This document shows positions 39,479 through 62,661 of a DNA stretch of 64,000 bases, piece by piece. The DNA comes from Cytophagales bacterium (GTDB lineage Bacteria > Bacteroidota > Bacteroidia > Cytophagales > UBA9547): positions 62,001 to 126,000 of the forward strand of contig JAAFIH010000009.1 of NCBI GenBank assembly GCA_013297755.1, given 5' to 3'. Position 1 is the first letter of the stretch. Every line of letters begins with the position of its first letter. A program made the translations under genes and the position numbers. The notes beneath the pieces were generated by a model, which had not been told where the DNA came from, ran no database searches, and was given only the letters and a program-made list of their open reading frames with translations.

Positions 39479-39814
39479 CTAAAACAATTCCAACTGTTGT
39501 GGCATATTTTCACGGTGTTTTTTTTCTCTGCAATAAAATATTTTCATGTCGCCAAACTGCTTGTCGGTAATTTTTGTAATGACTACGTGCCCTTTTTCGG
39601 GTAGTAAATCTTGTACACGTTTGATGTGCACATCGGCATTTTCGCTACTAAAGCAATGTCGCATATACATGCTGTACTGAAACATCGTAAATCCATCTCT
39701 CATTATTTCTGTACGAAATTTTGTGGCTGCTTTTCGCTCCTTGGTTTCTACCACTGGCAAATCAAAATATACCATTACCCACATGATTCTATATTGGTTT
39801 AGTCGGTCCAACAT
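39479..39814 (-). CDS. cas2: CRISPR-associated endonuclease Cas2
   Basis: Cas2 of 111 residues, the structural partner of Cas1 in spacer integration. The beta-alpha-beta ferredoxin fold is seen in MWVMVYFDLPVVETKERKAATKFR (Asp of the first strand at YFDLP) and in GHVVITKITDKQFGDMKIFY. This subtype II length and the LDRLNQYR leader are typical of type II-C. It lies 56 bp after cas1 and 33 bp before the HIRAN gene, all on the minus strand. ATG is at 39814; a second ATG a few codons in is possible. Confidence 0.95.
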   Translation of the reverse strand: MLDRLNQYRIMWVMVYFDLPVVETKERKAATKFRTEIMRDGFTMFQYSMYMRHCFSSENADVHIKRVQDLLPEKGHVVITKITDKQFGDMKIFYCREKKHRENMPQQLELF

Positions 39815-39870
39815 GGCTTTAAATATTTGGTCTATTCAAAGTTAATGATAATGTGGATAACTACAAAACT

Positions 39871-40797: not shown

Positions 40798-40803
40798 TTT
40801 TTC

Positions 40804-41940: not shown

Positions 41941-41944
41941 ACCC

Positions 41945-41974
41945 CAAATATATACAACATTTTGTATGATACAA
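41945..41974 (-). promoter_or_regulatory. Promoter of the ATPase gene
   Basis: On the minus strand: TTG (41972-41974), 19 bp, TATATTTG (41945-41952), matching the Bacteroidota consensus TTG-N19-TAnnTTTG. The ATG at 41940 is only 4 bp beyond the -7 box, so the transcript would be almost leaderless. Confidence 0.6.
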
Positions 41975-41998
41975 AATGTATGATACAAAATGTTGTAT
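41952..41998. promoter_or_regulatory. Operator-like overlapping palindromes
   Basis: ACATTTTGTAT, G, ATACAAAATGT at 41957-41979 is a perfect 11+1+11 palindrome. A second half site ATACAAAATGTTGTAT at 41983-41998 pairs with 41952-41967. The motif ATACAAAATGT is thus repeated and lies across the promoter spacer, as a repressor site would. Confidence 0.6.
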
Positions 41999-42085
41999 GA
42001 AATTTCATTTTCACTTGCAACCATCTATAAAAATAGCAAATCGTAATGCTGTTTTCGTGGATGATTAGGCTTTGGAGATATTCAA

Positions 42086-45000: not shown

Positions 45001-46054
45001 GAGTTTTATAATTGAAATCGTATCCTCCATCCAGCAATTTGATAATCTCTTCAAAATCAAAAGAAGTATCTTTCTTTTTAAGAAATTTTTCTTTCCAAAT
45101 TTTCTCTTTCCATTCAGTTGGTATGGTTCGAAAATTATTTTTTTCTTCGCTTTTATATTTGTATTTGATGTTGTTAATCACGCTCCAAGCCCTAAAAACT
45201 TCAAATTGAGGGTGGCTAATAGGACAACGTGTTTTGTTTTTTTCTAAGGTACATTTACCTACCAAGCCTTTTTGTGAACGCAGTGGTCTTTGCCAAATAA
45301 TTGCTTTATGGATGTTTTTATAAAAATCAGAATCTTTTGATATGCCTTGAACCTCACAAATTAGATTTAATTCATGCTCTACTTGTTTGCGAAGTATATA
45401 CCTGTTTCTAATTCTATCAAATCTAGTATCTAATGTAGCCAATGCAGCTCCCAAACTTCCTTCAGTTTCTATTAAATTAGTAATTGCATCTGATCCAGGT
45501 CTGCCTTCTATTCCTTTAGAAATGGTTTCACTTTCATTTCCTTGCTCTTTTCTACCACTCAAAAAACCTCTTCTTTGAACCAAATGGTATAAAGCCCTAC
45601 CTATTTCTAAATTTGAGAGTTTTTCTCTAATAGCTTTAGCTCTCAATTGATACGGATTTTCATATTCACTTACCGAATCGTTGTTGAAATCTAGTTTCAA
45701 CCAATTGTGAAATAGAGTAGAAGTAGGATAAACACGTTTTCTAATTGCTTTATCATAATGATACCAAGCCTCAAAATCTTTTTTTGAAAGTGGACAAAAT
45801 TGACTTTCAGTTTCAATAAGTGTTTTTATGAGTTGCCATTTTTGGTATTTCTTTACTTGATAGTTTCTTCGTATGCCCCGATTTTTAGTTCGTTTAAAAA
45901 CCATTGGCTCTTCATTTCCAGAACTATCTTGTCCAACTCCCTTTTTGAAAATCAAAACACCATTATCAATAATCTGATTTTCTTCCAACTGAGGGTTTCT
46001 AATTGCCCAACCAATAGAATTTGTTCCTAAATCTAGTCCAATAATTTTGTTCAT
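42086..46054 (-). CDS. cas9: CRISPR-associated endonuclease Cas9, type II-C
   Basis: Cas9 of 1322 residues, the RNA-guided double-strand DNA nuclease. RuvC-I is at the N-terminus (IIGLDLGTNSIGWAI, Asp ~8), followed by the Arg-rich bridge helix (RTKNRGIRRNYQVKKYQKWQ). RuvC-II is at ~665 (VVVELARDLN), HNH at ~745 (IEHTIPASQSFDDSMENKTL) and RuvC-III at ~910 (THHTIDAAVLTL). All catalytic residues appear intact. No csn2 or cas4 is present, so the locus is type II-C, in the long Bacteroidota branch. It is divergent from tracrRNA candidate A. ATG at 46054. The guide pairing and PAM cannot be read from this sequence. Confidence 0.97.
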   Translation of the reverse strand: MNKIIGLDLGTNSIGWAIRNPQLEENQIIDNGVLIFKKGVGQDSSGNEEPMVFKRTKNRGIRRNYQVKKYQKWQLIKTLIETESQFCPLSKKDFEAWYHYDKAIRKRVYPTSTLFHNWLKLDFNNDSVSEYENPYQLRAKAIREKLSNLEIGRALYHLVQRRGFLSGRKEQGNESETISKGIEGRPGSDAITNLIETEGSLGAALATLDTRFDRIRNRYILRKQVEHELNLICEVQGISKDSDFYKNIHKAIIWQRPLRSQKGLVGKCTLEKNKTRCPISHPQFEVFRAWSVINNIKYKYKSEEKNNFRTIPTEWKEKIWKEKFLKKKDTSFDFEEIIKLLDGGYDFNYKTHQNIAASPICAGLYEIFGENWQTQKIGKYTLEDIWHVLFNFDDKDRVELFAIEKLGLEPKMADKFVILWKKTPDGYAQLSLNAITKINEYLLQGFIYTEAVLYANMPKVVGVEFYNTHKSVIQEGITYIFKYQNSINDTLKIVNNLIGKFLALPNEEQFGWDNSYQLDANDKKEINDSILDYFGQKSWNEFPKEKQDFITKTVSDLYLKFLQYPRGTKAKTFLPIPRLDEAVIQFLRNNFDHITDKDIEKLYHPSDNDIYQPSLPDKEDHKKYLQSPKTGSFKNPMAMRTLHELKRLMNYLIETEKIDEDDRVVVELARDLNDANMRVAIEKWQNANEKKNEEYKVEIERHGYNKNDKDLIQKVRLWNEQGKMSIYTGEMISIADVFDGMKFQIEHTIPASQSFDDSMENKTLCETAFNARKNNRIPTQLENYTEIEARLTPWIDKVEKLKFRYELAKKKSKSAQSKDSKDLAIQEKHIIRFELDYWKNKLYRFQMTEVKGGFRNANLVDTQIITKYAFHYMKSVFKRVDVQKGEVTSIFRKIFEINEEKNRSKHTHHTIDAAVLTLIPKAAERESILKQYFEAQEQKIKFHKKPWKNFHQSQLLKLDDETLIQNSTRDKAVIQTVKYVRKRGKIVYLTDKSGQFILDNEGKKIPKVATGDTIRGQLHNESMLGAIILPKLDVEGNPLRNDSGEFEYEENAKRVYVIRKKLEFSDLGFKDKKALEDIIDPVVRKKVLDHIEKYGLNKETFKNPIWMNEEKVIRINKVRVKTDLKNPLQIRKHVFESEKEYKKYYYADTAKGANIICAFYQYDYLGKQEREFEIINLLDAAYLVSHKLLNEKGEISISKLNKAGETIQPYALLKPGTKVIFFEQKLEELKGLDKTTLNKRLYRILKFKGIQMTFEYHLEARSADEISKKGKELEDKIYSFGYSKIDFNKPKHRYLLTKGNFNFAIEHKHFEMMPDGEIKWKV

Positions 46055-49552: not shown

Positions 49553-50971
49553 ATGGAAACTATAGAAACCCTAAGTACTACTCAAGTTCAATTGATTACA
49601 CCAGTAGAAGCATGGCACTATAAAATTATCCCTTCTAATAAAAACACTTTTTTTTGTAGCCAATCTTCTTCTATTGCTCAGCTAAAAGAGGAGCTAGAAA
49701 TGATTTGGGATAGAAAAATTGCATTAGTACCTATTTCAGACGAGGCATTGACCAAAGCCCTCAATACTTATTATCGTAAATCTAATGGCTCACAAACTTC
49801 TAGTTCCACTGGGCAAAACTATACAGGTGGTAGCGACAATTTTTTGCCATTTATGATTGCAGAAGCTCGAAATCTAAGAAGTAGTGATATTCATATAGAA
49901 GTATATGATGCCAAATGTCGTGTGCGTATTCGCATAGATGGTATGTTGGTTGAGCGATTTAAGATTGATAAAAACGAATACCCAAGTATTATCAACAAAA
50001 TTAAAATTATGTCTCAATTGGATATTGCAGAAAAGCGATTACCCCAAGATGGACGTATATTTTTTAATAAAGAAGGGATGAAATTTGATATCAGGGTGAG
50101 TGTACTCCCTACCTTGCATGGCGAAAAAGTAGTCATGCGTTTACTGAGTAACGATTCTACCAATATTGACATAGAAAAACTAGGTTTTGAGCAAGAAGAT
50201 TTAGACAATTACTTAGAAGGAATTCGTAAACCCAATGGTATTTTGCTCATTTCAGGACCTACAGGAAGTGGGAAAACCACCACATTGTATGCTACTCTTA
50301 AATTATTAAATAAAGAAAGTAGAAATATTGTTACTATCGAAGATCCTATTGAATACACGTTAGAAGGCATCAATCAAGTACAATTAAAAGAAGTCATAGG
50401 ACTTACTTTTTCAAGTGCTTTGCGTTCTTTTTTACGACAAGATCCAGATGTAATCATGGTAGGAGAAATTCGTGATACAGAAACAGCCACTATGGCGATA
50501 AGAGCCTCACTCACAGGGCATTTGGTGTTGAGTACTATTCACACCAACTCAGCATGGGGTACTATTTCTCGTTTGATAGACATGGGTGTACCTCCTTTTT
50601 TGGTAGCTAATACACTCAATACTTCTGTAGCACAGCGTTTGGTTCGTTTGCTTTGTGATGAGTGCAAAGAGCAGCAACCTTTTGAAAGTAAACTTTATCC
50701 TAAACATTTTACTGCTCCTAGACATTTGGTACACCATCATACACCCAAAGGTTGTGCTTCTTGCCACTATACAGGCTACAAAGGCAGAAAAGCTGTGTAT
50801 GAAGTAATTCCCATAGACAAAACGCTTTCTGACCAAATCAAAAACAACAATATGCAAGTAGATGCCATTCTTGCTGAAAAAGGAATAAAAACTCTTTCTC
50901 AAAATGCTTTTGAACTTTTCGAAAATGGCAAAACAAGTTTAGAAGAAATTTATAGTTTGTTGTTTGCGTGA
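49553..50971 (+). CDS. Type II secretion / type IV pilus assembly ATPase (GspE/PilB)
   Basis: Secretion ATPase of 472 residues, a cytoplasmic hexamer that powers pseudopilus or pilus assembly. N-terminal domain to ~95, then EARNLRSSDIHIEVYDAKCRVRIRIDG. Walker A GPTGSGKTTT (~235), Asp box, DPIEYTLEGINQVQL, Walker B LRQDPDVIMVGEIRD, His box TGHLVLSTIHTN. The zinc-binding CDECK...CASC is near the C-terminus, as in GspE and PilB. It faces the secretin-PilNOP gene group across an island. The last 100 bp of this gene occur again at 53271 and 54020. Confidence 0.93.
   Translation: METIETLSTTQVQLITPVEAWHYKIIPSNKNTFFCSQSSSIAQLKEELEMIWDRKIALVPISDEALTKALNTYYRKSNGSQTSSSTGQNYTGGSDNFLPFMIAEARNLRSSDIHIEVYDAKCRVRIRIDGMLVERFKIDKNEYPSIINKIKIMSQLDIAEKRLPQDGRIFFNKEGMKFDIRVSVLPTLHGEKVVMRLLSNDSTNIDIEKLGFEQEDLDNYLEGIRKPNGILLISGPTGSGKTTTLYATLKLLNKESRNIVTIEDPIEYTLEGINQVQLKEVIGLTFSSALRSFLRQDPDVIMVGEIRDTETATMAIRASLTGHLVLSTIHTNSAWGTISRLIDMGVPPFLVANTLNTSVAQRLVRLLCDECKEQQPFESKLYPKHFTAPRHLVHHHTPKGCASCHYTGYKGRKAVYEVIPIDKTLSDQIKNNNMQVDAILAEKGIKTLSQNAFELFENGKTSLEEIYSLLFA
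50872..50971 (+). repeat. gspE 3' end, direct repeat copy 1 (native)
   Basis: Native end of the ATPase gene (…GCTTTTGAACTTTTCGAAAA…TTGTTGTTTGCG). Copies 2 and 3 follow downstream, bounding inserted cargo. Confidence 0.85.
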
Positions 50972-51030
50972 GAAAACTATATATTATAAAAGCTTTTTTT
51001 TTATTAAAAATTTAAAATTTAGTAAAGTCT

Positions 51031-51366
51031 ATGAATAAAGAAATGCTAAATATAGAAGATAAAATCTTAAATATTGATAGTTTATTAAATTGGTTAAATA
51101 ACCAAAAAATTACTTTCTTAGCTGGTGCTGGAATTTCATTTGATTCTGGTATCCCTATAGTATCTGAATTTTATATTCAGTTTTTATCTAAATTTTATTC
51201 TAATAAAGATGCTAAGATTTTAAATGAAGAAATTAAAAAAAATAGAATACCATTTGAAAGAATGATTGAACATATTTTTAGCTATACAAATAATGATTAT
51301 TCGCTATTAAATATTTTTTTAAAAGGCAATCCAAACATAAATCATATGGTTTTAGCAAAATGTTAA
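51031..51366 (+). CDS. SIR2-domain protein, N-terminal part (frameshifted)
   Basis: 111 residues with the start of a SIR2 fold: ITFLAGAGISFDSGIP carries the NAD-binding GAGIS motif. The frame stops at 51364-51366. The next frame (51360 on) continues exactly where a SIR2 domain should (INHMVLAK, then NDTINEIYTTNFDLLIE), so the two frames are one gene shifted by -1 at an AAAA run. Either a mutation or programmed frameshifting. Base composition is markedly more AT- and Lys/Asn-rich than the flanking genes, pointing to transfer. It sits directly after the secretion ATPase in the same direction. Confidence 0.8.
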   Translation: MNKEMLNIEDKILNIDSLLNWLNNQKITFLAGAGISFDSGIPIVSEFYIQFLSKFYSNKDAKILNEEIKKNRIPFERMIEHIFSYTNNDYSLLNIFLKGNPNINHMVLAKC

Positions 51367-53147
51367 TTAATGATACTATTAATGAAATATATACAACAAA
51401 CTTTGATTTATTAATTGAAGCTGCATTAGAAAAAAATGGTTTTATTCAAAATAATTATTATTATAAATATATTGCTGAGTCAGAATTTCAAAAGAAAAAT
51501 CTTGATAATAATAAAAGAAAAATTATAAAAATTCATGGCTCAATTGATAAATTTGATTCTATTAGAACAACACTAGAGTCAATAAATACTCCTCAACTTT
51601 TAAATTTACGTGAACAAATTTTTAAAAGATTGTTTTCAACTGGTAGTCATGAAACTGTTATAACTATTGGTTATAGCTTTTCTGATGAATTTGACGTCAA
51701 TTTATATTTAGAAAAGAATGAAGTAAAAAAATATATCATTATAGTTGAACATACTAATGATACTACAATTACAATAAATCAGTTAAAAGATTATAAAAAC
51801 GGCAACAATTTTCCTGTTTTTTCTAATACGAATTGTAAAGGCTTTGCAATTAAAGTTAACACAACATTTTTTCTTAAAAAGTTATATGAGTTAAAAAAAA
51901 ACGAAAAATTATCTTTGAAAGTAGATAAGATTAATTGGAAAAATTTTCTAAATTCTTGGCATTCCCAATTTGATGAATTTCAAATTAAATGTATTGCTGG
52001 GGGCATTTGTAATTCTATGAATTTATTTCCATTTGGTAAAAAATATTTGAAAAATGCCTACAAATTAGCAGTCCAATCAAATGAAATAGAACAAATTGCC
52101 AATGTATTAAATCAATATTCCTTATCTATTTTCAGAACTAGTAATAACAAAAAGAAATTAATAAAAATTATTGAAGATTGTAAATATGCAATTGAAATAA
52201 TGAAAAAAAATAAAACTAAAATATTAAATGAAAATTTTATAAAATTATATTATGATTTAAATTACAGAATAGGTAGAATATACAAAGATGGTTTAAATGA
52301 ATATGAAAAAGCATTACAGTTTTACTATTTGGTATATAAAAAAGAGTATAAGTTAAACGAAACCAAATCAATGTCTCAAACTTTACATGAGATTGGAAAT
52401 ACATACAAATTTTTAAAAAACTTTAAGTTATCGGAAAAGTGTTTTATAAAAAGCATTAAACTAAAAAAAGATTCTGGATATATTGGAGGCTTAGCTAGAA
52501 CGTATTTTGAAATGGCAACATTAAATTATGTTGATTGTAAAGTTAACATAAAAAAAATCAAATTTTATTTGAAAGAAGCCGAAAAAATTGCTTTGAAGGC
52601 TGGCGAAATTGATTTAGTCCCATTAATAGAAAATTTTAAGGGAAACTTATTTATATTACAACAAAAATGGGTTGATGGACTTAATGTATATAAAAAAAAT
52701 TTACCACTTTGTAAAAAATATTTTTATCATAATATGATAAAAACAGCGAATTTTAATATGGCACTTTGTGAAATAAGATTAAAAAAATATGATAATGCAA
52801 TTAAACTTTTAGAAGAAAATCTTAAAAAAATTGGAGACAATAAAATAAAAGTTTTTAAACATAACCAGGAACTAGCTTTTGCATTTTTATTAAATAATAA
52901 ACCTATAGAATCTAAGGTTTATTTTCAAAAAAATGAAAAGAATATTAAAACGCTTCAACTTGAAGATGAAGATCTTGCTAGATTTTTTTTATATTCTTCT
53001 TTTTACTTTAAAAAGGAAAATGAATTTGAAAAGTCTAAAACATATCAGACAAAATCTAAAAATATTTTTTTAAAAATAAATAAAACGAGAACATTTGCTT
53101 CTTTAAAGAAACTCTTTGATCTGGAGTTGTTCAATGACGATTATTAA
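51360..53147 (+). CDS. SIR2-TPR protein, C-terminal part (frameshifted)
   Basis: 595 residues. Residues 1-~150 complete the SIR2 fold (YTTNFDLLIEAALEKNG, KIIKIHGSIDKF with the catalytic-type His, TVITIGYSFSD). The rest is a helical array of TPR-like repeats (ALQFYYLVYKKE, QTLHEIGNTYKFLKNFKLSE, IGGLARTYFEMATLN, TANFNMALCEIRLKKYDNAI). SIR2 joined to repeats is the layout of several phage-defence NADases (for example DSR- or ThsA-like). It is inserted between the ATPase gene and a duplicated fragment of its 3' end. Function inferred; activity doubtful unless the frameshift is bypassed. Confidence 0.8.
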   Translation: MLINDTINEIYTTNFDLLIEAALEKNGFIQNNYYYKYIAESEFQKKNLDNNKRKIIKIHGSIDKFDSIRTTLESINTPQLLNLREQIFKRLFSTGSHETVITIGYSFSDEFDVNLYLEKNEVKKYIIIVEHTNDTTITINQLKDYKNGNNFPVFSNTNCKGFAIKVNTTFFLKKLYELKKNEKLSLKVDKINWKNFLNSWHSQFDEFQIKCIAGGICNSMNLFPFGKKYLKNAYKLAVQSNEIEQIANVLNQYSLSIFRTSNNKKKLIKIIEDCKYAIEIMKKNKTKILNENFIKLYYDLNYRIGRIYKDGLNEYEKALQFYYLVYKKEYKLNETKSMSQTLHEIGNTYKFLKNFKLSEKCFIKSIKLKKDSGYIGGLARTYFEMATLNYVDCKVNIKKIKFYLKEAEKIALKAGEIDLVPLIENFKGNLFILQQKWVDGLNVYKKNLPLCKKYFYHNMIKTANFNMALCEIRLKKYDNAIKLLEENLKKIGDNKIKVFKHNQELAFAFLLNNKPIESKVYFQKNEKNIKTLQLEDEDLARFFLYSSFYFKKENEFEKSKTYQTKSKNIFLKINKTRTFASLKKLFDLELFNDDY

Positions 53148-53157
53148 TCTACCCTTA

Positions 53158-53240
53158 CCCTATAACTTTTTCCACCCCTTTATGAACTAACTTATAATTT
53201 GATTTTGATAGTTTAATGATTTTAAACTCTTCATTATTCA
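53158..53240. repeat. Duplicate of the PilP-like gene 3' end
   Basis: Resembles 56780-56860, the 3' end of the minus-strand PilP-like gene (TTTCCACCCCTTTATGAACT ... TGATTTTGATAGTTTA). It is followed at once by gspE copy 2, i.e. the junction expected from a tandem duplication of the locus ends. Confidence 0.7.
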
Positions 53241-53270
53241 ATCTCAAAATAAATACTATTCATTTTTTTA

Positions 53271-53372
53271 GTCGAAAAAGGAATAAAAACCTTTTCTCAA
53301 AATGCTTTTGAACTTTTCGAAAATGGCAAAACGAGTTTAGAATAAATATATAAGTTTGTTGTTTGCTTGATG
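53271..53372 (+). repeat. gspE 3' end, direct repeat copy 2
   Basis: About 100 bp, roughly 90% identical to 50872-50971, with a premature stop (TTTAGAATAAAT). Not a functional gene. Confidence 0.85.
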
Positions 53373-53416
53373 GTTAAAATTATTGATGTAAACGGTTAAA
53401 CTTTATAGTCTAGATT

Positions 53417-53710
53417 TTAAATTTTTAGGGTTGCGAGCGGTGTGCCAAATAGCGAAAAGATTGTAGCCTTAATAATCTCATCTACAAAAAAAGCAATTAT
53501 AAACGGAAACCTTTCAACAGATGCATACCTTATTTCCTGGCCTTTTCGTTTATATCTTGTTTGATATGAATATGGATTTTGATCTACATGAAGCATGGTC
53601 TTTTTAATTTCTAATAGAAAATCATTTTCAAGTCCTGCATTTTGGATATAATACCAGTCCATACTTTCGTGAATATCAATTTCAGCAAAAGGCAAAATTT
53701 TGTAAGCCAT
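53417..53710 (-). CDS. RelE/ParE family toxin
   Basis: 97 residues of the RelE/ParE fold: YKILPFAEIDIHESMDWYY, then FLLEIKKTMLHVDQNPYSYQ, YKRKGQEIRYASVERFPFIIAFFV. ParE poisons gyrase and RelE cuts mRNA; this fold alone does not tell which. The C-terminal active-site-like residues are changed relative to classical members (ATIFSLFGTPLATLKI), so its activity may be weak. It overlaps the upstream antitoxin gene by one base. The pair lies between gspE repeat copies 2 and 3. Confidence 0.88.
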   Translation of the reverse strand: MAYKILPFAEIDIHESMDWYYIQNAGLENDFLLEIKKTMLHVDQNPYSYQTRYKRKGQEIRYASVERFPFIIAFFVDEIIKATIFSLFGTPLATLKI

Positions 53711-53943
53711 TATTTTTGATTTCTTACAAGAAGTCTTTTTTCCATTTCATCCCAATCTAAAACAATGTTTGGGTTTTTAAAATAATGGTCAATACGATAG
53801 TCCACCTCTTTTAAGTGGGCTTGACTTAATTCAAAATCATCTTCAGGGAGATGGTAGTGTTCTTTGAGTTTTGTCCATTCTTGAATGGGTATAAACACCC
53901 CAGTTGTAATTCCTTTTTTGTCTGAAATGTATTGTATGTTCAT
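53710..53943 (-). CDS. Antitoxin partner of the RelE/ParE toxin
   Basis: 77 residues. The N-terminal YISDKKGITTGVFIPIQEWTKLK is a strand-helix antitoxin fold of the kind paired with this ParE subgroup, and the C-terminal half (LKEVDYRIDHYFKNPNIVLDWDEMEKRL) is the toxin-binding helix. It precedes the toxin gene in the same operon, with the stop and start sharing a base. Binding to its own promoter is expected for such antitoxins but no operator is clear. Confidence 0.8.
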   Translation of the reverse strand: MNIQYISDKKGITTGVFIPIQEWTKLKEHYHLPEDDFELSQAHLKEVDYRIDHYFKNPNIVLDWDEMEKRLLVRNQK

Positions 53944-54019
53944 ATAAATGATTTCATAATAATACTTATGTAAATTAGTAGATTATTTTGACAAAATCAA
54001 AGTAATTTGCTTAAATAAT

Positions 54020-54096
54020 TTCTCAATTAAAAATCCTTTTGAACTCCTCGAAAATGGCAAAACGAATTTACAAGAAATTTATATTTTGTTGTTTGC
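54020..54096 (+). repeat. gspE 3' end, direct repeat copy 3
   Basis: About 75 bp related to 50895-50971 (CTTTTGAACTCCTCGAAAAT...TTGTTGTTTGCTTATG), more diverged than copy 2. Confidence 0.75.
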
Positions 54097-54156
54097 TTAT
54101 GAAATATTTTTACAATTCAAAACAAATTTGTATTATTGCTTTCAAATATTAATAAT

Positions 54157-55149
54157 ATGAAATTAATACACAAACTATTGCTTCTAATATTAAGCTTATC
54201 TGCTAATATTTTTGCCCAAGATTATAATCCATACACCCAATTTGGCTATCAGGGCACTATGATGCAATCCCAACAGGAGAAAATTAAAAACCAACATTTG
54301 GTACTTATAAATGCTGATACCACTGCAAAAATTCAAAGCATAAAATTTGATACCAAAAATCAAATAGTAACCTATTTTGATAAAAATAATGTTGCCATAG
54401 GTACTGATAGCATACATTCTACAGATATGCTAAAGTTTTTGAGTGTAGATCCACTCGCGAAAGATTACCCTAATATTTCAACGTATGGTTTTGCAGAGGA
54501 AGATCCAATTAATTTTGTTGATTTAGATGGACTTGAACGTGCTTATAAAGTGCCAGGCTCTACATTTGTTATACCTGCATCTGATTATAATAGACATACC
54601 CCTCCTAGCAATGCTGTTTATGTTAATAGAGCAATGCTAAGACAGCCAACCCAAATAGAAACAGGAGCTACTAATATTGCTTTAGGGATTGCAGGGGCAG
54701 TAGGTTCTACATACACAATTGCACAAAGTGCTGGAGTTGCAGCACCACTTGGGGGCACATTGGCATTAACAACCTCAATTATTCAAATTGGCTTAGGAAT
54801 GTCTCAAGTTGGTGATGGTATTAAAAATCCAAATAATCCTAAAATTACAGATGCTAATGGTATTGGTGGCATGATTACGTCAAAATCACAAAATGATAAT
54901 ATTAAACTAGCTGGTGCTGTTTTCGATGTTGTAACAGGTGTAACTCCAGGAGTTGTAGCGAATCAAGGAGTAGCTAAATTGCCAATATTGGGTTCTGCAA
55001 AGGATTTAGTTAGTTCTACCAAAACATCAGAAACTATTTTGAGCACAGCATCTGTCATTAGTGATTATATGACTGTAAAAGATATTTATGCAACTAGCAA
55101 TGATGTAGTTGATTTAACAAAAAAATCTATTCCTAAATATGATAAATAA
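54157..55149 (+). CDS. RHS-core-like secreted protein, possible polymorphic toxin
   Basis: 331 residues from the ATG at 54157; an ATG at 54136 is also in frame but lies before the signal peptide (IHKLLLLILSLSANIFAQ). Residues ~95-130 hold the RHS repeat-associated core motif (LSVDPLAKDYPNISTYGFAEEDPINFVDLDGLE). The C-terminal two thirds are Ala/Gly/Val-rich with hydrophobic stretches (LALGIAGAVGSTYTIA) and no identifiable catalytic motif. It looks like a short secreted RHS-type effector whose N-terminal repeats are missing. The next gene may be its immunity partner. Confidence 0.65.
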   Translation: MKLIHKLLLLILSLSANIFAQDYNPYTQFGYQGTMMQSQQEKIKNQHLVLINADTTAKIQSIKFDTKNQIVTYFDKNNVAIGTDSIHSTDMLKFLSVDPLAKDYPNISTYGFAEEDPINFVDLDGLERAYKVPGSTFVIPASDYNRHTPPSNAVYVNRAMLRQPTQIETGATNIALGIAGAVGSTYTIAQSAGVAAPLGGTLALTTSIIQIGLGMSQVGDGIKNPNNPKITDANGIGGMITSKSQNDNIKLAGAVFDVVTGVTPGVVANQGVAKLPILGSAKDLVSSTKTSETILSTASVISDYMTVKDIYATSNDVVDLTKKSIPKYDK

Positions 55150-55217: not shown

Positions 55218-55676
55218 ATGAAATTTAAACACAAAAACAAAAATTTAAGGAGTGATTTCATTATAAAAAATCTATTAATATTATCCGTTTTTAATGCAGT
55301 TTTTTTAATAAATTTTATTATCAATGACTCGTATTTTTTTATTGTAGTTAGTGTTATATTTTCTTCAATATACTTATATGTATTGAAAACGCCATATCTA
55401 ATTGAATTTAACGAATATGATAAATCATTTAGTATTTACTATTACAAAATAATATCAGAAAGAAAACTCACTTTAAATTTTGATGAATTGCAGTTTCAGT
55501 ATTGTTTTGATGCAGTTTCAAAAGGTATTGTTAGGCAGGTTTTACGTTTTTTTAAAAAGAATAAAGAAATTTATGTAGTTATTGAAGGTAGAGATGAGTG
55601 GGATAAAGAATCATTAGAACAGATTTTTGATTATTTAACTCTTATTAAAATAGAACAAATTAAATGTAACCATTGA
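55218..55676 (+). CDS. Small membrane protein, possible immunity protein
   Basis: 152 residues. Two adjacent membrane segments (residues ~20-60, LLILSVFNAVFLINFIIN and YFFIVVSVIFSSIYLYVL) are followed by a soluble beta-rich domain (FNEYDKSFSIYYYK, KEIYVVIEGRDEWDK) of PH-like appearance. Not recognised. It follows the RHS-core gene by 68 bp and precedes the transglutaminase-like gene, and small two-TM proteins are common immunity partners of secreted toxins; that role is inferred from position. Confidence 0.6.
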   Translation: MKFKHKNKNLRSDFIIKNLLILSVFNAVFLINFIINDSYFFIVVSVIFSSIYLYVLKTPYLIEFNEYDKSFSIYYYKIISERKLTLNFDELQFQYCFDAVSKGIVRQVLRFFKKNKEIYVVIEGRDEWDKESLEQIFDYLTLIKIEQIKCNH

Positions 55677-55730: not shown

Positions 55731-56744
55731 ATGAAAAACCTCCTCTCAGTTCTACTCTTACTTTTTACACTCTCCCTTTCAGCCAAAGAAAAAACACCCA
55801 AACAAAAATATGAACAAGCTTATATTCAATTGTCTGATATGCTAGAAGGAAAAAAGCCTTTAGATTACAAAAAAGCAGTATTTATAGTAGAAGACACTTA
55901 CTTAAACAACACTCTCAATTACAAAGAATTTTCAGATTATTTTTCTACTTTAGCTCAAAAAATAAAAGAATATATAGCAGCTAAAGGATTGGAAAAATAC
56001 AAAACAGCCTATCATTATGGCATCTTTAGCTATATGACAGAACCTAGCTATATCAACAACCAACAAACATGTACTTATGATTTTGAAGACATTATGGGAG
56101 ACAAAGATTGGACTAAAATGTTTGTAACCAAACTCATCAAAACTAAAAAAGGAAATTGCAATTCTTTGCCTACATTTTACAAAATAATGGCAGAAGAACT
56201 ACATATAGAAGCCTTTTTGGCAGAAGCACCCAATCATTTGTACATCAAACATTTAGATGAAAACAACAAATGGGTAAACCTAGAACTCACCAATGGGCAT
56301 CCTTCTTCAGATGCATGGATGATATCTTCTCTGGGGATTTCAGCAGAAGCCATCAAGCAAGGCATATACATGAATGGACTTACACTCAAACAATCTGTAG
56401 CCCTATGTTTGTTCAACCTCTGTCAAGCCTACCACAAAGAATATGGAGATGATTGGTTTGTGCTTAAATGCACCAACCAAGTATATAAACATTATCCACT
56501 TGGAATACACAATTTAATGGCAAAATACAATTGTTTAAGAGAAATGGGAGTAAAAATGCAAGCAGAAGCAAAGATAAAAGGCATTATAAAAAGTGATTTG
56601 ATGGATGCCAACTACAGAGAATTTAAAATCACAGAACAATACATCAATACACTTGGCTATAGAGAACTTCCTGCTGATAAATATGCAGATTGGGTAAAAT
56701 CTGTTGAAACCGAAAAGGAAAAACAAAATATACTTAAAAAGTAA
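55731..56744 (+). CDS. Secreted transglutaminase-like protein
   Basis: 337 residues with a signal peptide (LLSVLLLLFTLSLSA). The centre shows a transglutaminase-like Cys/His core: KKGNCNSLPTFYKIMAEELHI with the nucleophile-type Cys (~150), then APNHLYIKH with the His and WVNLELTNG with the Asp/Asn position. The C-terminal half is helical. It probably acts in the periplasm on peptide or envelope substrates. It is convergent with the PilP-like gene and is the last cargo gene of the island. Confidence 0.75.
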   Translation: MKNLLSVLLLLFTLSLSAKEKTPKQKYEQAYIQLSDMLEGKKPLDYKKAVFIVEDTYLNNTLNYKEFSDYFSTLAQKIKEYIAAKGLEKYKTAYHYGIFSYMTEPSYINNQQTCTYDFEDIMGDKDWTKMFVTKLIKTKKGNCNSLPTFYKIMAEELHIEAFLAEAPNHLYIKHLDENNKWVNLELTNGHPSSDAWMISSLGISAEAIKQGIYMNGLTLKQSVALCLFNLCQAYHKEYGDDWFVLKCTNQVYKHYPLGIHNLMAKYNCLREMGVKMQAEAKIKGIIKSDLMDANYREFKITEQYINTLGYRELPADKYADWVKSVETEKEKQNILKK

Positions 56745-56770
56745 TAAATTATAACTTCACCCTTTAATTT

Positions 56771-57271
56771 CTATCCCCTCCCAATAACTTTCTCCACCCC
56801 TTTATAAACTAACGTAATATTTGATTTTGTTAGTTTAAGGATTTTAAATTCTTCAATAATCATTCCTTCTGTTACCGTATACTCTTTGTTATTGATGTTA
56901 ATAATACCCATGTGTTTGGCATTAGCTTGATGAGAAATCAAACCTAGATATTTTACATCTGGCCAAACGATGGCTGAAACTGTTGTAATAATAGGTATAT
57001 TAAGTTTTGATATTTTAGGTACTGTGAGCTTACGTTTTATGGTTGATAAACTAGAATTTGAAAACGCAGTGCCTAAAAAAGGGTCTTTATAATTTGCCAT
57101 TAAAACATAAACAGTATCCTTTGTTTCTTCAATTTTAGCAAACTGGATTGGGTTTGTATTTACTTCAACTGCTTTTTCGGGATTCAAATCCGAAAAAAAC
57201 TTGTAAAATAAATATCCCCAAATACCTGCTACCAACACTAAAAGTAAATACGTAACGTTCTTTTTTTTCAT
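56771..57271 (-). CDS. PilP/GspC-like inner-membrane protein
   Basis: 166 residues with an N-terminal membrane anchor (VTYLLLVLVAGIWGYLFYKFF). The soluble HR-type domain (residues ~55-165: YKDPFLG, VWPDVKYLGLISHQ, INNKEYTVTEG, FKILKLTKSNITLVYKGVEKVI) matches the fold of PilP/GspC, which links the inner-membrane platform to the secretin. It is the last gene of the minus-strand secretion operon. A fragment of its 3' end is duplicated at 53158. Confidence 0.75.
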   Translation of the reverse strand: MKKKNVTYLLLVLVAGIWGYLFYKFFSDLNPEKAVEVNTNPIQFAKIEETKDTVYVLMANYKDPFLGTAFSNSSLSTIKRKLTVPKISKLNIPIITTVSAIVWPDVKYLGLISHQANAKHMGIININNKEYTVTEGMIIEEFKILKLTKSNITLVYKGVEKVIGRG

Positions 57272-57338: not shown

Positions 57339-58607
57339 TTAAGGCGTTGCAAATCTTCGAGTGATAGAAACTGGACTAGTATTTCCAAAAACATCTTTTG
57401 CTTTAATTTTCCAAAAATAGGTACCAGAAGCAGGAGCATTGAAGGTGTAAAATTGGTTGGTGGTGCTGTAAATTGGAAAGCCAGCAACTAAGTTTGTTGT
57501 GTTATTGGCATATACCCATAAACTATCGCCTTCTATTAGTGTACTTGAACCTCTATCCCAACGTAAGGTTACAGACGAAGTTACTGTTGCCAAGTCATCA
57601 GGAGCTACAAATGCTGATGCAGATGGCGATGGTGGCGAGACACTAAATGTCCGAATTTCAGATGGAATACTTCCAGAAGAGGTTATGGCTGTGGCTCGCC
57701 ATTGATGCTGACCAGTAGTGTTAAAAACTACGCGAGCAATCTGTGCTGAATCGGGCGAAACTAAGGTGTTTAAAACGGTAGAAGTTGGATTTGCAAAGGT
57801 ATTTGCTACAATCTCAATTCTATAGTTTACTGCTGAACCAATCCTAGTCCATCTAAATGGTATTCGATTGGTATTCACAAACGATTCGTTTTGAGCAGGA
57901 GCATTTAATAACATACTTTGATTATTAACCACAAAATTTCTGGTTTCAGAACTTGAAGTATCTGAAAAGTTACTGTTAAACGCATTTACTTTCCATTCAT
58001 AGTTTCCAACACCTGGCAATGTGCCCACACCTGTTAAACTCATGCTAAATGAAGTCGAGTTTCCATTATCAATGGTATATGTACTTGTTGGACTTGTAAA
58101 ATTTGGTGTTGCCAAAATCAATTGATAACGAGTAGCCCCAATAATGCTTTGCCAACTAAAATTTTGGATTAAAGATGTAATCAACGAACCACTCGATGGC
58201 GAATTGAGTATCACTGTACTAGATTGCAATTGTCTGGATGTATCTACACGAAAAGTTCGGGTACTAAAAGGCGAAAAATAGCCTCCATTTTGCACCCTAA
58301 CCCGCCAAGTGTAATTTGCATTATTATTTAAGCGAATGGTGTATTTTAATTTTGTGGTAATGGTATCTGTCCAAAGTCTGCCCCTGTCGTCTTCTATTTG
58401 AATGGTGTATCTTACAGGATTAGAAACCCTTATTTCTTCCCATGTAAAAGTTTGGCTGAGAGTACTAGAACGGATTTTATCAGCTGGTGATGTTAAAACC
58501 ACAACAGTTTTTTCTAAATTATCTTCTCTAAACACTGTGCAAGAAGCTATTCCAGCCAATGCACAGAATATGATATACATTTTATTTTTTATACTTTTCA
58601 TTTTCAA
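57339..58607 (-). CDS. Lipoprotein with fibronectin-III-like domains
   Basis: 422 residues. A lipoprotein signal ends in IASC at residue ~23. About four FN3-like beta-sandwich units follow, each with a WxxxxxxxxYxxxI type strand pair (FTWEEIRVSNPVRYTIQI, FSWQSIIGATRYQLIL, FRWTRIGSAVNYRIEI, LRWDRGSSTLIEGDS). Not a standard secretion component; its position between PilO- and PilP-like genes suggests an accessory envelope part of the system. Confidence 0.8.
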   Translation of the reverse strand: MKMKSIKNKMYIIFCALAGIASCTVFREDNLEKTVVVLTSPADKIRSSTLSQTFTWEEIRVSNPVRYTIQIEDDRGRLWTDTITTKLKYTIRLNNNANYTWRVRVQNGGYFSPFSTRTFRVDTSRQLQSSTVILNSPSSGSLITSLIQNFSWQSIIGATRYQLILATPNFTSPTSTYTIDNGNSTSFSMSLTGVGTLPGVGNYEWKVNAFNSNFSDTSSSETRNFVVNNQSMLLNAPAQNESFVNTNRIPFRWTRIGSAVNYRIEIVANTFANPTSTVLNTLVSPDSAQIARVVFNTTGQHQWRATAITSSGSIPSEIRTFSVSPPSPSASAFVAPDDLATVTSSVTLRWDRGSSTLIEGDSLWVYANNTTNLVAGFPIYSTTNQFYTFNAPASGTYFWKIKAKDVFGNTSPVSITRRFATP

Positions 58608-58616
58608 ATTTTCATT

Positions 58617-59129
58617 TTAAATAACTGTTTGAACGATTATTTTCAGAGTCAATATTTTTTTTCGGGTATTGTAATCCATACTGGTTTCAAATAATGTATG
58701 TACAACTCTGCCAAGTCCATCTGTATTTTCGAGTTTGTTTGATACTTTTAGTAAATTTATATAATTTCCTTGTAAATAAAGAACTGTTGTGTTGATTTCT
58801 CCGTTGGTTTTTGGAGGTTCATAGCTTTTTAGCATAACTGTTTTTGTAGATGTAAAACTACTAATGGTTTTCAAAAGTTTATCTTGTGCTTTTCCTGAGC
58901 TGTCTGCGTAAGCAGCCAACGATTTTTGTATTTTCATCAATTGATATTCTAGCATAGCTTTGTTTTGAGGTTCTGCAATTGCCTTTTCATGAATGGCTTC
59001 CATGTCAATAGCTTTAGCTTTTACATCTATTGTTTTTTTTATTGCCAAAATGTAAACTAAAAACAATACCACCCCTATCCCAATAAGGAGATAGTTAAAT
59101 CTTTGCTTTGATGATAAATTGTTGAACAC
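58617..59129 (-). CDS. PilO/GspM-like inner-membrane protein
   Basis: 170 residues. One N-terminal membrane segment (LLIGIGVVLFLVYILAI) is followed by a coiled coil (~30-90) and a ferredoxin-like domain (MLKSYEPPKTNGEINT, YLQGNYINLLKVSNKLE, VHTLFETSMD). This is the PilO/GspM layout. It follows the PilN-like gene and a tandem heptamer repeat. Confidence 0.75.
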   Translation of the reverse strand: MFNNLSSKQRFNYLLIGIGVVLFLVYILAIKKTIDVKAKAIDMEAIHEKAIAEPQNKAMLEYQLMKIQKSLAAYADSSGKAQDKLLKTISSFTSTKTVMLKSYEPPKTNGEINTTVLYLQGNYINLLKVSNKLENTDGLGRVVHTLFETSMDYNTRKKILTLKIIVQTVI

Positions 59130-59133
59130 CTAC

Positions 59134-59224
59134 TTAATTGTTAATTGTTAATTGTTAATTGTTAATGTGTAATGTGTAATGTGTAATGTGTAATGTGTAA
59201 TGTGTAATGTGTAATGCGTAATGT
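59134..59224. repeat. Heptamer tandem repeats between PilN- and PilO-like genes
   Basis: About four to five units of TTAATTG, then about eight of TAATGTG, in a 164-bp gap inside the operon. All are 7 bp. Copy-number change would alter the distance between the two genes on the transcript. Confidence 0.85.
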
Positions 59225-59293
59225 ATTTTTTTTAAATGATAATTTCAAAATCGTAAATCTCAAATCGTAATTTATAAATCGTTAATATAAAAT

Positions 59294-60520
59294 TTATTTA
59301 ATTTTTATTAAAATACTAAATAATCCCTTTTGAGTTGTTTCTTCTAGTTTATAGTTTATGATTTCAGCATCTGATACAAATTTTTGTTGCTTAAGCACTT
59401 GTAACCAGTCGTTTAAGGTATTTCCATTGGGTGTTTGTCCTTCAACTATAATGGTTTTAGCATCAAATTTATATTCCTTTTTGTCTCTCTCTGCTTTTTT
59501 ATCTTGTTCTGCAATTTCTAGTTTAGTAAGAGAAATTTCTTGTGGCACATTTGCTGCTATGCAATCTGCATAATAACTCATTTTCGGGCTTTGACTCCAA
59601 CCTTCTTGTATCAGAAAGGCATTTTTCGAGGCTAATTTTTGTTTCATATCTTCAACTTCTTTCATTTCAATGGATGTCTGAGCGTATGAAAGTTCTAACG
59701 ATTGTGCTTTTTTGAAATAATATTGAAATGCAACTGTGTTCAACAATACAATACATAAAATGGCAACTAAAGCTATTATTCCTAGCTTTTTGAAAGCATA
59801 ATCATATATTGTTTGTTCTCTAGCATTTTCAAATCGACTATTTTCAACTCCCTTTTCAGGTTGAAGCAAAGCATTCAAACCTGTTGCGTAAGTAATGGCC
59901 GTATTTGCAGAAATTATTTCAGTATCTATAACTAAATCGTGGGATTGCATGGCATACTGCCAAGATATTATTTTGTAAATTCCCTGTTTGTCTTTAGCTA
60001 GATTAAATGTAAAATTCCCTGCATCCCAAGTTTCATGGTAATTATTTTGAGGAATTAAAGAAAATAAATTTGCTAAAGCCAAAGACCCCAACGAGAAAAA
60101 GATTATCACATTTCCTTCGTTCTCAACTTCTTGAAGTATAGGGTCTATCAATGATTTTCGAGCAAAAGCTACTTGCTTTTGATTTTCATCTCCAAAAATT
60201 TGAATATAAAAATCGCTTGCGATTGCTCCAGGAACAAGTTTTGAAAACCAATCTATATTTTCTTCATTTTCTTCAAACGTATACGATTTGATTAAAATCC
60301 CTTTGCCTTTTATAGTAAGTGCTATTGGCGTTTTTGTTTCTTTTTTTGAAGTTGTATTTTTGGCTGACAATTGTTCTATGTTAGCTACTTCAATTCCTTT
60401 TTTGGTTTGAATAAGGGTAATTTCTTTTCTATCTCTAGTATCATCTATTAGTTTTATATGTATTGCCTTTAGCTGAGGAAGTGTAAAAAAATAGCCTTTA
60501 ATATTAGAAAGAATCTGCAT
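59294..60520 (-). CDS. PilN/GspL-like protein with actin-like cytoplasmic domain
   Basis: 408 residues. The N-terminal ~250 residues look like the actin-like cytoplasmic domain of PilM/GspL (VIIFFSLGSLALANLF, DAGNFTFNLAKD). A membrane segment at ~265 (LGIIALVAILCIVLLNTVAF) leads into a coiled coil and a PilN-like domain (MSYYADCIAANVPQEISLTKLEI, QTPNGNTLNDWLQVL). It thus combines PilM- and PilN-type parts, as GspL does. It is 8 bp after the secretin gene. Confidence 0.8.
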   Translation of the reverse strand: MQILSNIKGYFFTLPQLKAIHIKLIDDTRDRKEITLIQTKKGIEVANIEQLSAKNTTSKKETKTPIALTIKGKGILIKSYTFEENEENIDWFSKLVPGAIASDFYIQIFGDENQKQVAFARKSLIDPILQEVENEGNVIIFFSLGSLALANLFSLIPQNNYHETWDAGNFTFNLAKDKQGIYKIISWQYAMQSHDLVIDTEIISANTAITYATGLNALLQPEKGVENSRFENAREQTIYDYAFKKLGIIALVAILCIVLLNTVAFQYYFKKAQSLELSYAQTSIEMKEVEDMKQKLASKNAFLIQEGWSQSPKMSYYADCIAANVPQEISLTKLEIAEQDKKAERDKKEYKFDAKTIIVEGQTPNGNTLNDWLQVLKQQKFVSDAEIINYKLEETTQKGLFSILIKIK

Positions 60521-60528
60521 TTTATCTA

Positions 60529-62661
60529 TTAGTAAATAATTGTTGGTCTAATAAATACCAATAATTTACTTTTCTTTTTTGTTTTTTCCCTGCTACTAAA
60601 CAACCATTTTAGAATAGGAATTCTTGATAAAAATGGGATTCCAGAACCTGATTCGCTTTTTTGTATACCTTCAAGTCCTCCAAGTACTATCATCTCTTCA
60701 TTCTTTACGCGAATCATGGATTTGAATGTTTGTGTAAATGTTCCAACGGGTGCATTGGCAGCTGTTCGGGGTTTGAAACTGGAGTTTTCAAATTCAATAT
60801 CCATGGTTACTTGATCATCGCCACTTACAATTGGGTTGATTTTAATCGATAAATTAGCTTGTATCTGATTCCACTGGATGGTTTTGATTGTATTGGTAGT
60901 AAGCGACCCTAATGTATTTTGGGTTTCTATGCTATAATAATCAGTTTCTCCAATTTTGAGTGTGGCTTCATGCCCATTTAAAGTTGAAAGTTTTGGGGTT
61001 TGTTTTACATCTACATCGCCTTGACTTTCTAATGCACTAAGAGTTAAATAAAAACTGCTATTTATTTTTCCAATATTAACAGCATTTCCTAAAAATGGAA
61101 TCCCTGCCAATAGTTCGTTAAACTTTCTAGAGTTAAAAGTATAATCCAATCCATTGGCCCCTAATACGTTTCCGCCTGATTTTACGGTATCTCTAAATCC
61201 AGCACTTATACCTGTTTTTGATGTGCGAGATTTTGATACATTTACAAAAATGGCTTCTAATTGAATTACTGGAACAAGTCTGTCTAGTTTTTTGATTAAT
61301 AGTTTCAATTCAGCTATTTGTGGAGCCGAGCCACTCATGATTAAGCTATTCAATTCTTTAAAATATTTGATATCAACACCTTTTTTAAGGTCTGAAGGGA
61401 TGTTATCTAGCATGATTTCTGCACTGCGGTATTGCAACTGCACCACTTCACTTTCTCTAAAGCCTTCATTGCCTCTTTCGCCAATCAGATAAGTATTGTC
61501 TCTATTTTTCCAAGTATGATCAGTGCCTTGCAACAACACTGACAACACATCGTCAAAAGGGGCTTTATTGATTTTTGTGGTAATATTTCCTTTGGGGTCA
61601 GAAAATAAATAAAAGTTTTTGCCTACGTCCTCTGACATACTTTTTACTAGTTCTGCAACTGGCAAATTATCTGCATCAATGCTTACCCATTTTTTACCTA
61701 AACTATCAGTAATTGTTATGGCTTTTTCTTCTGTTTCTTGTCCTTTTTTGGGTCTTGTTTTGGATTTTGAGGTTGTATTTGATTTTGAGCCTCTTGCATT
61801 TCTTGAATCATTACTTACACCACTAAAATTTACATCTCCAGCTTTGGTTGATGTTGTTTGCTCATATTCTACTTCATTTGGTTCGAGTGTTAAGTTTCCT
61901 TCTTTTGATTTTTCTAAGAGCATATTGTTGGCATAAGCCAATCGCTCAACAGCTTGTTCAAATGGCATAGCTTCTATGTAGCCACTAACTAGTTTGTTTT
62001 CTAATCCTGGAGCAAGTGTTACATTTTTTTTTGATAGCTTGATAATCTTTTTAATTACTTCTGTAAGGGTGTCTTTTCGTAAATCGGCACTCAATTTATC
62101 GTTATAGCTGTTATACTCAACATTAAAGGCTTTGGGTTTTACTTTTTCTGGCTCTGGTTTGGCTTCTTCAAATTTATAAAACGACATGATACTACCTGTA
62201 AATCTAATATCTAAATTATATTCTCTACACAAAAATAGGATGACATTCATCACTTTTTCGTTGTTGAAATTATAAATAACTTTGAAATTTAAGTTTGGGT
62301 CTATGCTTACATTCAGGTTGTGGGTTTCGGCTATTGCTCTCAAAAATTCGTGTATCGATGCCCCTGAAATCGAAAAATCTATTTTTTCTTTTAATCCTAA
62401 GGCTTCTTTTTTACTCAATTCTAATAGGCGGTCTTCTATCATTCGCCACCTACCTTCCATCATTGGTACATAAGGATATTCAGGCTCTTGTGCTTGATTT
62501 AAGTTTTGACTGGTTACAGTTGGTGTAGTTATAGCAGCTTTTGTTGATTTGTTATTTTTTTTAAGTTTAGTACTTTGTGAAAAAACCGATAAACAACCAA
62601 ACATCCATACGATAAAAAAAAATCTCAAAATTGCGTCCACCGTTTGTGCTCTGTTATCCAC
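60529..62661 (-). CDS. Secretin, GspD/PilQ type
   Basis: 710 residues. Signal peptide, then N-domains (STN-like FSISGASIHEFLRAIAETHNL at ~95), a Lys/Ser/Thr-rich disordered linker (~290-330), further N-domains (DVLSVLLQGTDHTWK, LLIKKLDRLVPVIQLEAIFV), and the secretin core with VDVKQTPKLSTLNGHEATLKIG and VLGGLEGIQKSESGSGIPFLSRIPILKWLF, the classic C-terminal signature. Forms the outer-membrane channel of the type II secretion or type IV pilus-like machine encoded here. Confidence 0.95.
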   Translation of the reverse strand: MDNRAQTVDAILRFFFIVWMFGCLSVFSQSTKLKKNNKSTKAAITTPTVTSQNLNQAQEPEYPYVPMMEGRWRMIEDRLLELSKKEALGLKEKIDFSISGASIHEFLRAIAETHNLNVSIDPNLNFKVIYNFNNEKVMNVILFLCREYNLDIRFTGSIMSFYKFEEAKPEPEKVKPKAFNVEYNSYNDKLSADLRKDTLTEVIKKIIKLSKKNVTLAPGLENKLVSGYIEAMPFEQAVERLAYANNMLLEKSKEGNLTLEPNEVEYEQTTSTKAGDVNFSGVSNDSRNARGSKSNTTSKSKTRPKKGQETEEKAITITDSLGKKWVSIDADNLPVAELVKSMSEDVGKNFYLFSDPKGNITTKINKAPFDDVLSVLLQGTDHTWKNRDNTYLIGERGNEGFRESEVVQLQYRSAEIMLDNIPSDLKKGVDIKYFKELNSLIMSGSAPQIAELKLLIKKLDRLVPVIQLEAIFVNVSKSRTSKTGISAGFRDTVKSGGNVLGANGLDYTFNSRKFNELLAGIPFLGNAVNIGKINSSFYLTLSALESQGDVDVKQTPKLSTLNGHEATLKIGETDYYSIETQNTLGSLTTNTIKTIQWNQIQANLSIKINPIVSGDDQVTMDIEFENSSFKPRTAANAPVGTFTQTFKSMIRVKNEEMIVLGGLEGIQKSESGSGIPFLSRIPILKWLFSSREKTKKKSKLLVFIRPTIIY

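What the first reader, a model, noticed from the sequence alone, without database searches (positions are those of the whole stretch)
50872..54096. 3' end of a secretion ATPase gene used as a repeated insertion boundary
About 100 bp of the gspE/pilB 3' end recur at 53271 and 54020, and a piece of the convergent PilP-like gene end recurs at 53158, directly joined to copy 2. Between the copies lie different cargo: SIR2-TPR, then a toxin-antitoxin pair, then RHS/immunity/transglutaminase genes. This marks a cargo-exchange site built by duplication of the ends of two convergent genes instead of a tRNA site.
Basis: partly seen in the sequence, partly recalled or inferred. Interest (0 to 1): 0.7.

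Follow-up and report, generated by a model that had tools for sequence, protein, structure and literature searches.

The report
Cargo genes stacked behind gene tails
In this bacterium, foreign genes (many of toxin or anti-virus type) have been slipped in just after the stop codons of ordinary genes, each time leaving a short stranded copy of the host gene's last 30-230 letters on the far side, and this locus is one of about nine such cases found in a third of the genome.

Summary
The repeats are real. The last 96 bp of the T2SSE-type ATPase gene recur at 53274-53370 (90/97) and, shorter, at 54030-54104 (65/75). The end of the convergent PilP-like gene recurs at 53148-53243 (82/97). They occur nowhere else in the genome. 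The "conserved exchange site" claim cannot be tested here: in 9 of 9 inspected relatives gspE abuts the secretin gene, and both same-genus genomes lack it. The convergent interval exists only because the operon is broken up in this genome.

A scan of 1.28 Mb (30%) of this genome found the same signature elsewhere: metH, aspS (two remnants), miaA, a fadJ-like gene and three others. It is rare or absent in control genomes. Cargo is 0.3-2.9 kb, usually AT-richer than its host gene, and at six of eight loci includes toxin-antitoxin, restriction or anti-phage-like genes. No tyrosine integrase lies on these contigs. Sister species carry different genes behind the same host genes, and the sister aspS post-stop sequence survives behind the remnants, not behind the intact gene: remnants are displaced native ends. 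Best reading: one-sided insertion of DNA carrying the host gene's own end plus cargo, repeated outward. Mechanism unproven.

The parts
49553..50971 (+). host gene, T2SSE/PilB-type ATPase (gspE)
   Evidence: Pfam T2SSE 5.1e-129
50876..50971 (+). intact gene tail (T1)
   Evidence: aligned to T2 and T3
51031..53147 (+). cargo 1: SIR2-TPR gene split into two overlapping ORFs (51031-51366, 51360-53147)
   Evidence: SIR2_2 3.8e-14, TPR; PADLOC SIR2 models on both halves
53148..53243 (-). remnant of the PilP-like gene end
   Evidence: 82/97 to 56770-56865
53274..53370 (+). gspE tail remnant T2 (in-frame stop and 1-bp insertion)
   Evidence: 90/97; translation
53417..53943 (-). cargo 2: ParE-like toxin (53417-53710) and antitoxin (53710-53943)
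   Evidence: weak Pfam hits ParE_toxin E 0.092, Unstab_antitox E 0.0011, both below cut-off
54030..54104 (+). gspE tail remnant T3
   Evidence: 65/75
54136..55149 (+). cargo 3: secreted protein with an Rhs core-end and a variable C-terminal part
   Evidence: TIGR03696 E 5.7e-5, below cut-off
55218..55676 (+). cargo 3: small protein, putative immunity partner by position only
   Evidence: no family at E 0.1 (Pfam); position inference
55731..56744 (+). cargo 3: secreted protein, transglutaminase-like at best
   Evidence: Transglut_core E 0.098, below cut-off
56771..57271 (-). PilP-like gene, convergent with gspE only in this genome among those read
   Evidence: homologues in the T2SS-like operons of relatives
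57339..62661 (-). rest of the displaced operon piece: Ig-like protein, small protein, PilN-type, secretin
   Evidence: Secretin 9e-39, PilN 1e-4 just below cut-off; order in relatives

Best explanation
The tail copies are displaced native 3' ends. In this lineage, DNA made of [3' end of a host gene + cargo] is inserted at the same gene of the recipient. One side joins by homology inside the host gene; the other side joins without clear homology inside the recipient's last 30-230 bp of that gene. The host gene keeps an intact (possibly imported) end, cargo starts right after its stop codon, and the recipient's own end is left as a remnant on the far side, in front of the native downstream DNA. 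Repeating this gives outward stacks: gspE | SIR2-TPR | T2 | toxin-antitoxin | T3 | Rhs unit. The PilP remnant next to T2 suggests that the SIR2 unit came from a copy of this locus that already ended in PilP, so that two alleles of the interval were joined. Shown: repeats, orientation, genome-wide recurrence, variable cargo in sister species, remnants as native ends (at aspS). Inferred: one-sided homologous entry and its route (transformation or other).
For: Same signature at other host genes, always same strand and downstream: metH 45 bp, miaA 88 bp (98.9%), aspS 46 and 32 bp, fadJ-like 57 bp, C70 368-aa gene 52 and 63 bp, C3 surface gene 51 bp, C23 897-aa gene 230 bp. Scan: 14 of 821 genes in G000, 9 after by-eye removal of tandem duplications, against 0 of 290, 0 of 268 and 0 of 970 in three control sets and 1 of 224 in a same-genus genome. 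Stricter automatic rule: 9 of 769 against 2 of 1215, p = 0.0045; 7 against 2 without the window's own two genes, p = 0.02. With alignments free to run past the stop, matches end 0 to +8 bases after it in most pairs. Sister aspS tails plus up to 9 post-stop bases match the G000 remnants, but match G000's own aspS only up to the stop. In gspE and aspS the outer remnant is the more decayed one. A strong hairpin follows the metH remnant (fold -20.0 kcal/mol; -9.6 after the real metH). Cargo G+C is 0.22-0.30 versus 0.35-0.41 for the host genes at 7 of 8 loci. Cargo behind aspS, fadJ, metH and miaA differs among G000, G001 and G002. A ComEC-family competence protein is encoded. No Phage_integrase gene lies on the contigs of these loci.
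Against: No empty/filled pair of close strains exists in the data; G000, G001 and G002 differ too much in gene order. Differences between tails and remnants are 25 synonymous, 30 non-synonymous and 1 nonsense, which does not separate imported tails from local duplications. At diagnostic sites the result is mixed: in aspS the remnant matches the sisters more often than the own tail does, in metH and fadJ it is split, and at miaA's single difference the own tail matches G002 (read by eye). Illegitimate joins would not be expected to fall so regularly in the last 100 bp. No convincing remnants were found behind the same host genes in G001 or G002 (only hits of at most 34 bp with E of 0.01 or more). 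In the C3 surface gene and the fadJ-like gene similarity runs about 30 bp past the stop.
Confidence: 0.45

Rival explanations
1. Insertion with long target duplication: each cargo unit inserts and duplicates about 30-100 bp of target; selection keeps only events whose duplicated target covers the end of the host gene, so the gene stays whole.
For: Direct repeats of the described size (order of 100 bp, variable) around restriction-modification-like cargo; reported for restriction-modification systems (PMC3874152, passages). Cargo here includes C5 and EcoRI-type methylases, GmrSD_N, Uma2, RhuM, MazF, PIN and zeta-toxin genes.
Against: Most repeats end at or within a few bases of the stop codon instead of running a random distance past it, including the youngest one (miaA, 98.9%, +1). 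Start-anchored repeats upstream of genes are few (3 of 769).
Confidence: 0.3
2. Circular tail cassettes: excised circles of [tail + cargo] re-enter by recombination between the short tails, so the tail acts as a portable attachment site without an integrase.
For: Arrays of two cassettes bracketed by the same tail at gspE, aspS and the C70 gene; the PilP remnant next to T2 fits a closed circle of the whole interval.
Against: Tails of 32-96 bp and 87-95% identity are poor substrates for RecA (established knowledge, no call); no circle or second genomic site was seen.
Confidence: 0.1
3. Integrase-driven islands that use protein-gene 3' ends as attachment sites and have lost their integrases.
For: Restored 3' end plus displaced end is the classical picture of such islands (established knowledge, no call).
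Against: About nine unrelated host genes, no shared motif at the left edges (by eye), units of 0.3-2.9 kb with no integrase seen, and the six Phage_integrase genes lie on other contigs. Serine recombinases and transposases were not searched genome-wide.
Confidence: 0.07
4. Local tandem duplication of the gspE-PilP interval followed by loss and replacement of genes; no link to the other loci.
For: A tandem duplication would produce the PilP-end / gspE-end junction at 53243/53274.
Against: Does not explain T3, the different cargo in each unit, or the same signature at other genes.
Confidence: 0.08

Closest known systems
Insertion with long target duplication (restriction-modification units; Nobusato et al. 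2000, Furuta et al. 2010, both known to me only through citations)
   Same: Direct repeats in the order of 100 bp around toxin/defence-type cargo, no linked recombinase (PMC3874152, passages read)
   Different: Here the repeated piece is a host-gene 3' end that mostly stops at the stop codon, and units are stacked outward behind one gene
Sequential displacement of T6SS effector genes / orphan Rhs ends, explained by homology-facilitated illegitimate recombination (PMC5361080, passages read)
   Same: One anchored side, one illegitimate side, outward stacks with remains of what was displaced
   Different: The anchor here is a housekeeping gene (aspS, metH, miaA, gspE) that is not itself the variable cargo
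Minimal mobile elements of Neisseria (PMC3082526, passages read)
   Same: Different whole-gene cassettes next to conserved genes, incorporated by homologous recombination, no element-borne machinery
   Different: Defined by two conserved flanking genes; here the flank on one side is mostly not conserved between species and displaced tails are left behind
Genomic islands at 3' ends of tRNA or protein genes (recalled, no call)
   Same: Gene end restored, old end displaced
   Different: No integrase, many unrelated target genes, very small units

Membership tests
Insertion with long target duplication | direct target repeat of about 100 bp on both sides of the insert | tested here: met
Insertion with long target duplication | repeat is a duplication of recipient DNA, shown by an empty site in a related strain | tested here: inconclusive
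   no syntenic empty site among the nine relatives searched for miaA; G001/G002 too rearranged
Sequential displacement by homology-facilitated illegitimate recombination | outward stack with older remnants further from the anchor | tested here: inconclusive
   met at gspE and aspS, outer remnant shorter and more diverged; not at the C70 gene, where the outer remnant is the closer one
Sequential displacement by homology-facilitated illegitimate recombination | anchor-side sequence imported from the donor | tested here: inconclusive
   diagnostic sites mixed
Minimal mobile element | two conserved genes with different cassettes between them in different strains | tested here: not met
   gspE-PilP interval absent in relatives; for aspS a 120-aa neighbour is shared in three species, so that locus comes close
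Integrase-borne genomic island | linked site-specific recombinase | tested here: not met
   six Phage_integrase genes, none on C70, C3, C7, C23 or C67; serine recombinases not searched
tRNA-targeted island | tRNA gene at the boundary | tested here: not met
   no tRNA or tmRNA in the window

The most novel reading that the evidence does not exclude
A lineage-wide, integrase-free way of building defence islands: small cargo units carry the 3' end of a conserved housekeeping gene as their only passport, enter behind that gene in any strain that has it, restore the gene, and push the previous end and cargo outward, so that core genes such as aspS, metH and gspE become stacking platforms read like integron arrays.
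Probability: 0.25. Interest if true: 0.75.

Novelty: new variant of a known kind. Interest (0 to 1): 0.55.

Why it matters
How small defence and toxin genes without any transposase or integrase keep changing places is an open question. A displaced gene tail is a simple, searchable footprint of each event: it orders the insertions, marks the borders of the unit, and can be counted across genomes. If the reading holds, conserved core genes would serve as entry points for defence genes, and new systems could be found by scanning behind displaced tails.

Tried and rejected
Rejected: a tRNA site; a linked tyrosine integrase; other copies of the gspE or PilP ends in the genome (none); a common motif at the left edges (none seen by eye). 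Inversion as the direct cause of the repeats: the operon is split between contigs C70 and C49, but the repeats also occur at genes without any known inversion.

Led nowhere: the synonymous/non-synonymous test on tails; a miaA empty site in relatives; literature searches for the same pattern (no paper describing it in the listings; titles and beginnings of abstracts only).

Rows dropped by eye from the 14 G000 hits: C1 12513-13343 (148 bp away, local repeat), C56 48265-49632 (whole-region duplication), C56 second sample 21106-21663, C67 125929-126519 and 126529-127113 (tandem gene families). The automatic rule keeps 9, one of them weak (C23 second sample 6068-6715, 73%), and drops the C23 897-aa gene because its match covers the whole tail query. 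Of the two control hits, one (L020) belongs to a gene whose neighbours share repeats.

Only 30% of the genome was scanned; the host-gene counts are a sample. The control set of 80 loci comes from a gspE search, so it is not random.

Full report
Observation. The three gspE ends and two PilP ends were verified base by base and against the whole genome. They are far above chance (for the gspE tail) and unique to this locus. Layout: gspE T1 | SIR2-TPR (split reading frame) | PilP remnant, 30 bp, T2 | toxin-antitoxin pair on the other strand | T3 | Rhs-end protein, small protein, secreted protein | PilP-like gene on the minus strand.

Relatives of the locus. A search of 59 genomes found gspE matches in 12, G000 included. 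In the 9 relatives whose region I read, the secretin gene follows gspE directly on the same strand, and in 6 of them the PilP-like gene lies further down the same operon. In G006 the PilP-like gene sits in a separate piece. In G000 the operon is in two pieces: gspE facing PilP..secretin on C70, and pilin, prepilin peptidase and GspF with neighbours on C49. Both same-genus genomes lack gspE. The interval is therefore specific to this genome among those read, and whether it is an exchange site cannot be decided from relatives.

A genome-wide signature. I asked whether other genes have their 3' end repeated downstream. In 1,280,944 bases of G000 (821 genes of at least 150 aa), 14 genes have a same-strand, downstream match outside ORFs of 100 aa or more that reaches within 15 bp of the end of the gene; 9 remain after setting aside tandem gene families and local repeats by eye. 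Control sets with the same script gave 0 of 290 genes (G018), 0 of 268 (G006) and 0 of 970 (80 loci from other bacteria), and 1 of 224 in same-genus G001. A second, more sensitive scan with an automatic rule gave 9 of 769 in G000; 0 of 288, 0 of 255 and 2 of 672 in the controls; and 1 of 175 in G001. Fisher p is 0.0045, or 0.02 without the two genes of this window. In G000 the same rule gave 0 on the opposite strand downstream, 2 upstream, and 3 start-anchored matches of gene heads.

The other loci. metH (methionine synthase) is followed by a PD-T4-4-like AAA gene and a partner, then a 45-bp tail. aspS (class II D/K/N tRNA synthetase; the name aspS is recalled) is followed by two lipoprotein-like ORFs, a 46-bp tail, an antitoxin-like ORF with a PIN gene and one more ORF, a 32-bp tail, then a C5 methylase and a GmrSD_N gene. 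miaA (IPP transferase) is followed by two GT87 genes and an 88-bp tail with one difference. A fadJ-like gene is followed by three unknown ORFs and a 57-bp tail. A surface-protein gene on C3 is followed by zeta-toxin and MazF-type genes and a 51-bp tail. A 368-aa gene upstream of the window on C70 has two tails around a RhuM and a PD-(D/E)XK gene. An 897-aa gene on C23 has Uma2 genes and a 230-bp tail. Cargo G+C is clearly below that of the host gene at all but the C70 gene.

Polarity. In sister species G001 and G002 (aspS 94% and 91% identical as protein) the bases after the aspS stop resemble those after the G000 remnants, while the match to G000's own aspS stops at the stop codon. The remnants are thus the native end and the cargo lies between the intact gene and it. 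Behind the same host genes the sisters carry other genes: an EcoRI-type methylase with a GmrSD/HNH enzyme behind aspS in G001; an AbiLi-like AAA gene with RloB behind fadJ in G002 and none in G001; a YoeB toxin near miaA in G001. No convincing remnants were found there. So variable cargo behind fixed genes is real in this genus, while the tails are a G000-rich feature.

Mechanism. Two readings compete. In target duplication the repeat is copied from the recipient and may end anywhere past the stop. In one-sided insertion the incoming DNA carries the host gene's end followed at once by cargo, so similarity should stop at the stop codon. With alignments free to run past the stop, they end at 0 (gspE T2), +4 (gspE T3), +1 (PilP), +1 (miaA), 0 and +4 (the two C70 tails) and +8 (metH), but about 30 bp past it for the fadJ-like and the C3 surface gene. 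One search cut the gene side at the stop and cannot be used for this point. This favours, without proving, the one-sided reading, which is also the published model for stacked T6SS immunity genes (PMC5361080, passages). Codon statistics and diagnostic sites do not decide. A ComEC-family gene is present, which shows only that DNA uptake is possible.

At gspE the extra PilP remnant says more: the SIR2 unit arrived from, or was joined to, a copy of the interval that already ended in the PilP gene. Two alleles of the same interval would then lie in tandem. This is inference from the junction.

Known relatives. Restriction-modification units can insert with long, variable target duplications in the order of 100 bp (PMC3874152, passages); minimal mobile elements exchange cassettes between conserved genes (PMC3082526, passages). 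I found no paper describing stacks behind displaced ends of housekeeping genes in the searches, which cover only open PubMed Central text and of which I saw only the listings. I file this as a new variant of a known kind.

Noticed in passing
window 35130-36844 with 39479-46054: CRISPR array (about 76-bp period, 22.6 copies) with Cas1, Cas2 and a Cas9-type protein; an ATPase_2-family gene (40804-42024) sits between cas9 and cas1.
   Followed up: partly
L145:5718-11573 (metH, outside the window): Methionine synthase of 1951 aa with about 650 extra residues inside its activation domain: three tandem related units, one of them matching the phage/toxin-type nuclease family PBECR3 (just below its cut-off). 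Same-genus G002 has at least one such unit; none was seen at this threshold in the part of G001's gene held.
   Followed up: partly
window 51031-53147: The SIR2-TPR gene is interrupted by a frame change near 51360; it may be a pseudogene or an assembly error.
   Followed up: no
L120:1285-2593 (just right of the window): A second Rhs core-end protein (TIGR03696, E 5.1e-13) with a small downstream partner.
   Followed up: no
G000 C49 (L141) and C70: The T2SS-like operon is broken into two convergent pieces on two contigs; gene order also differs in G006.
   Followed up: partly
L234 (G001:C27:20802-24462): The same tail signature (39 bp, 92%) behind a 450-aa gene in a same-genus genome, with four unidentified ORFs in between.
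   Followed up: partly
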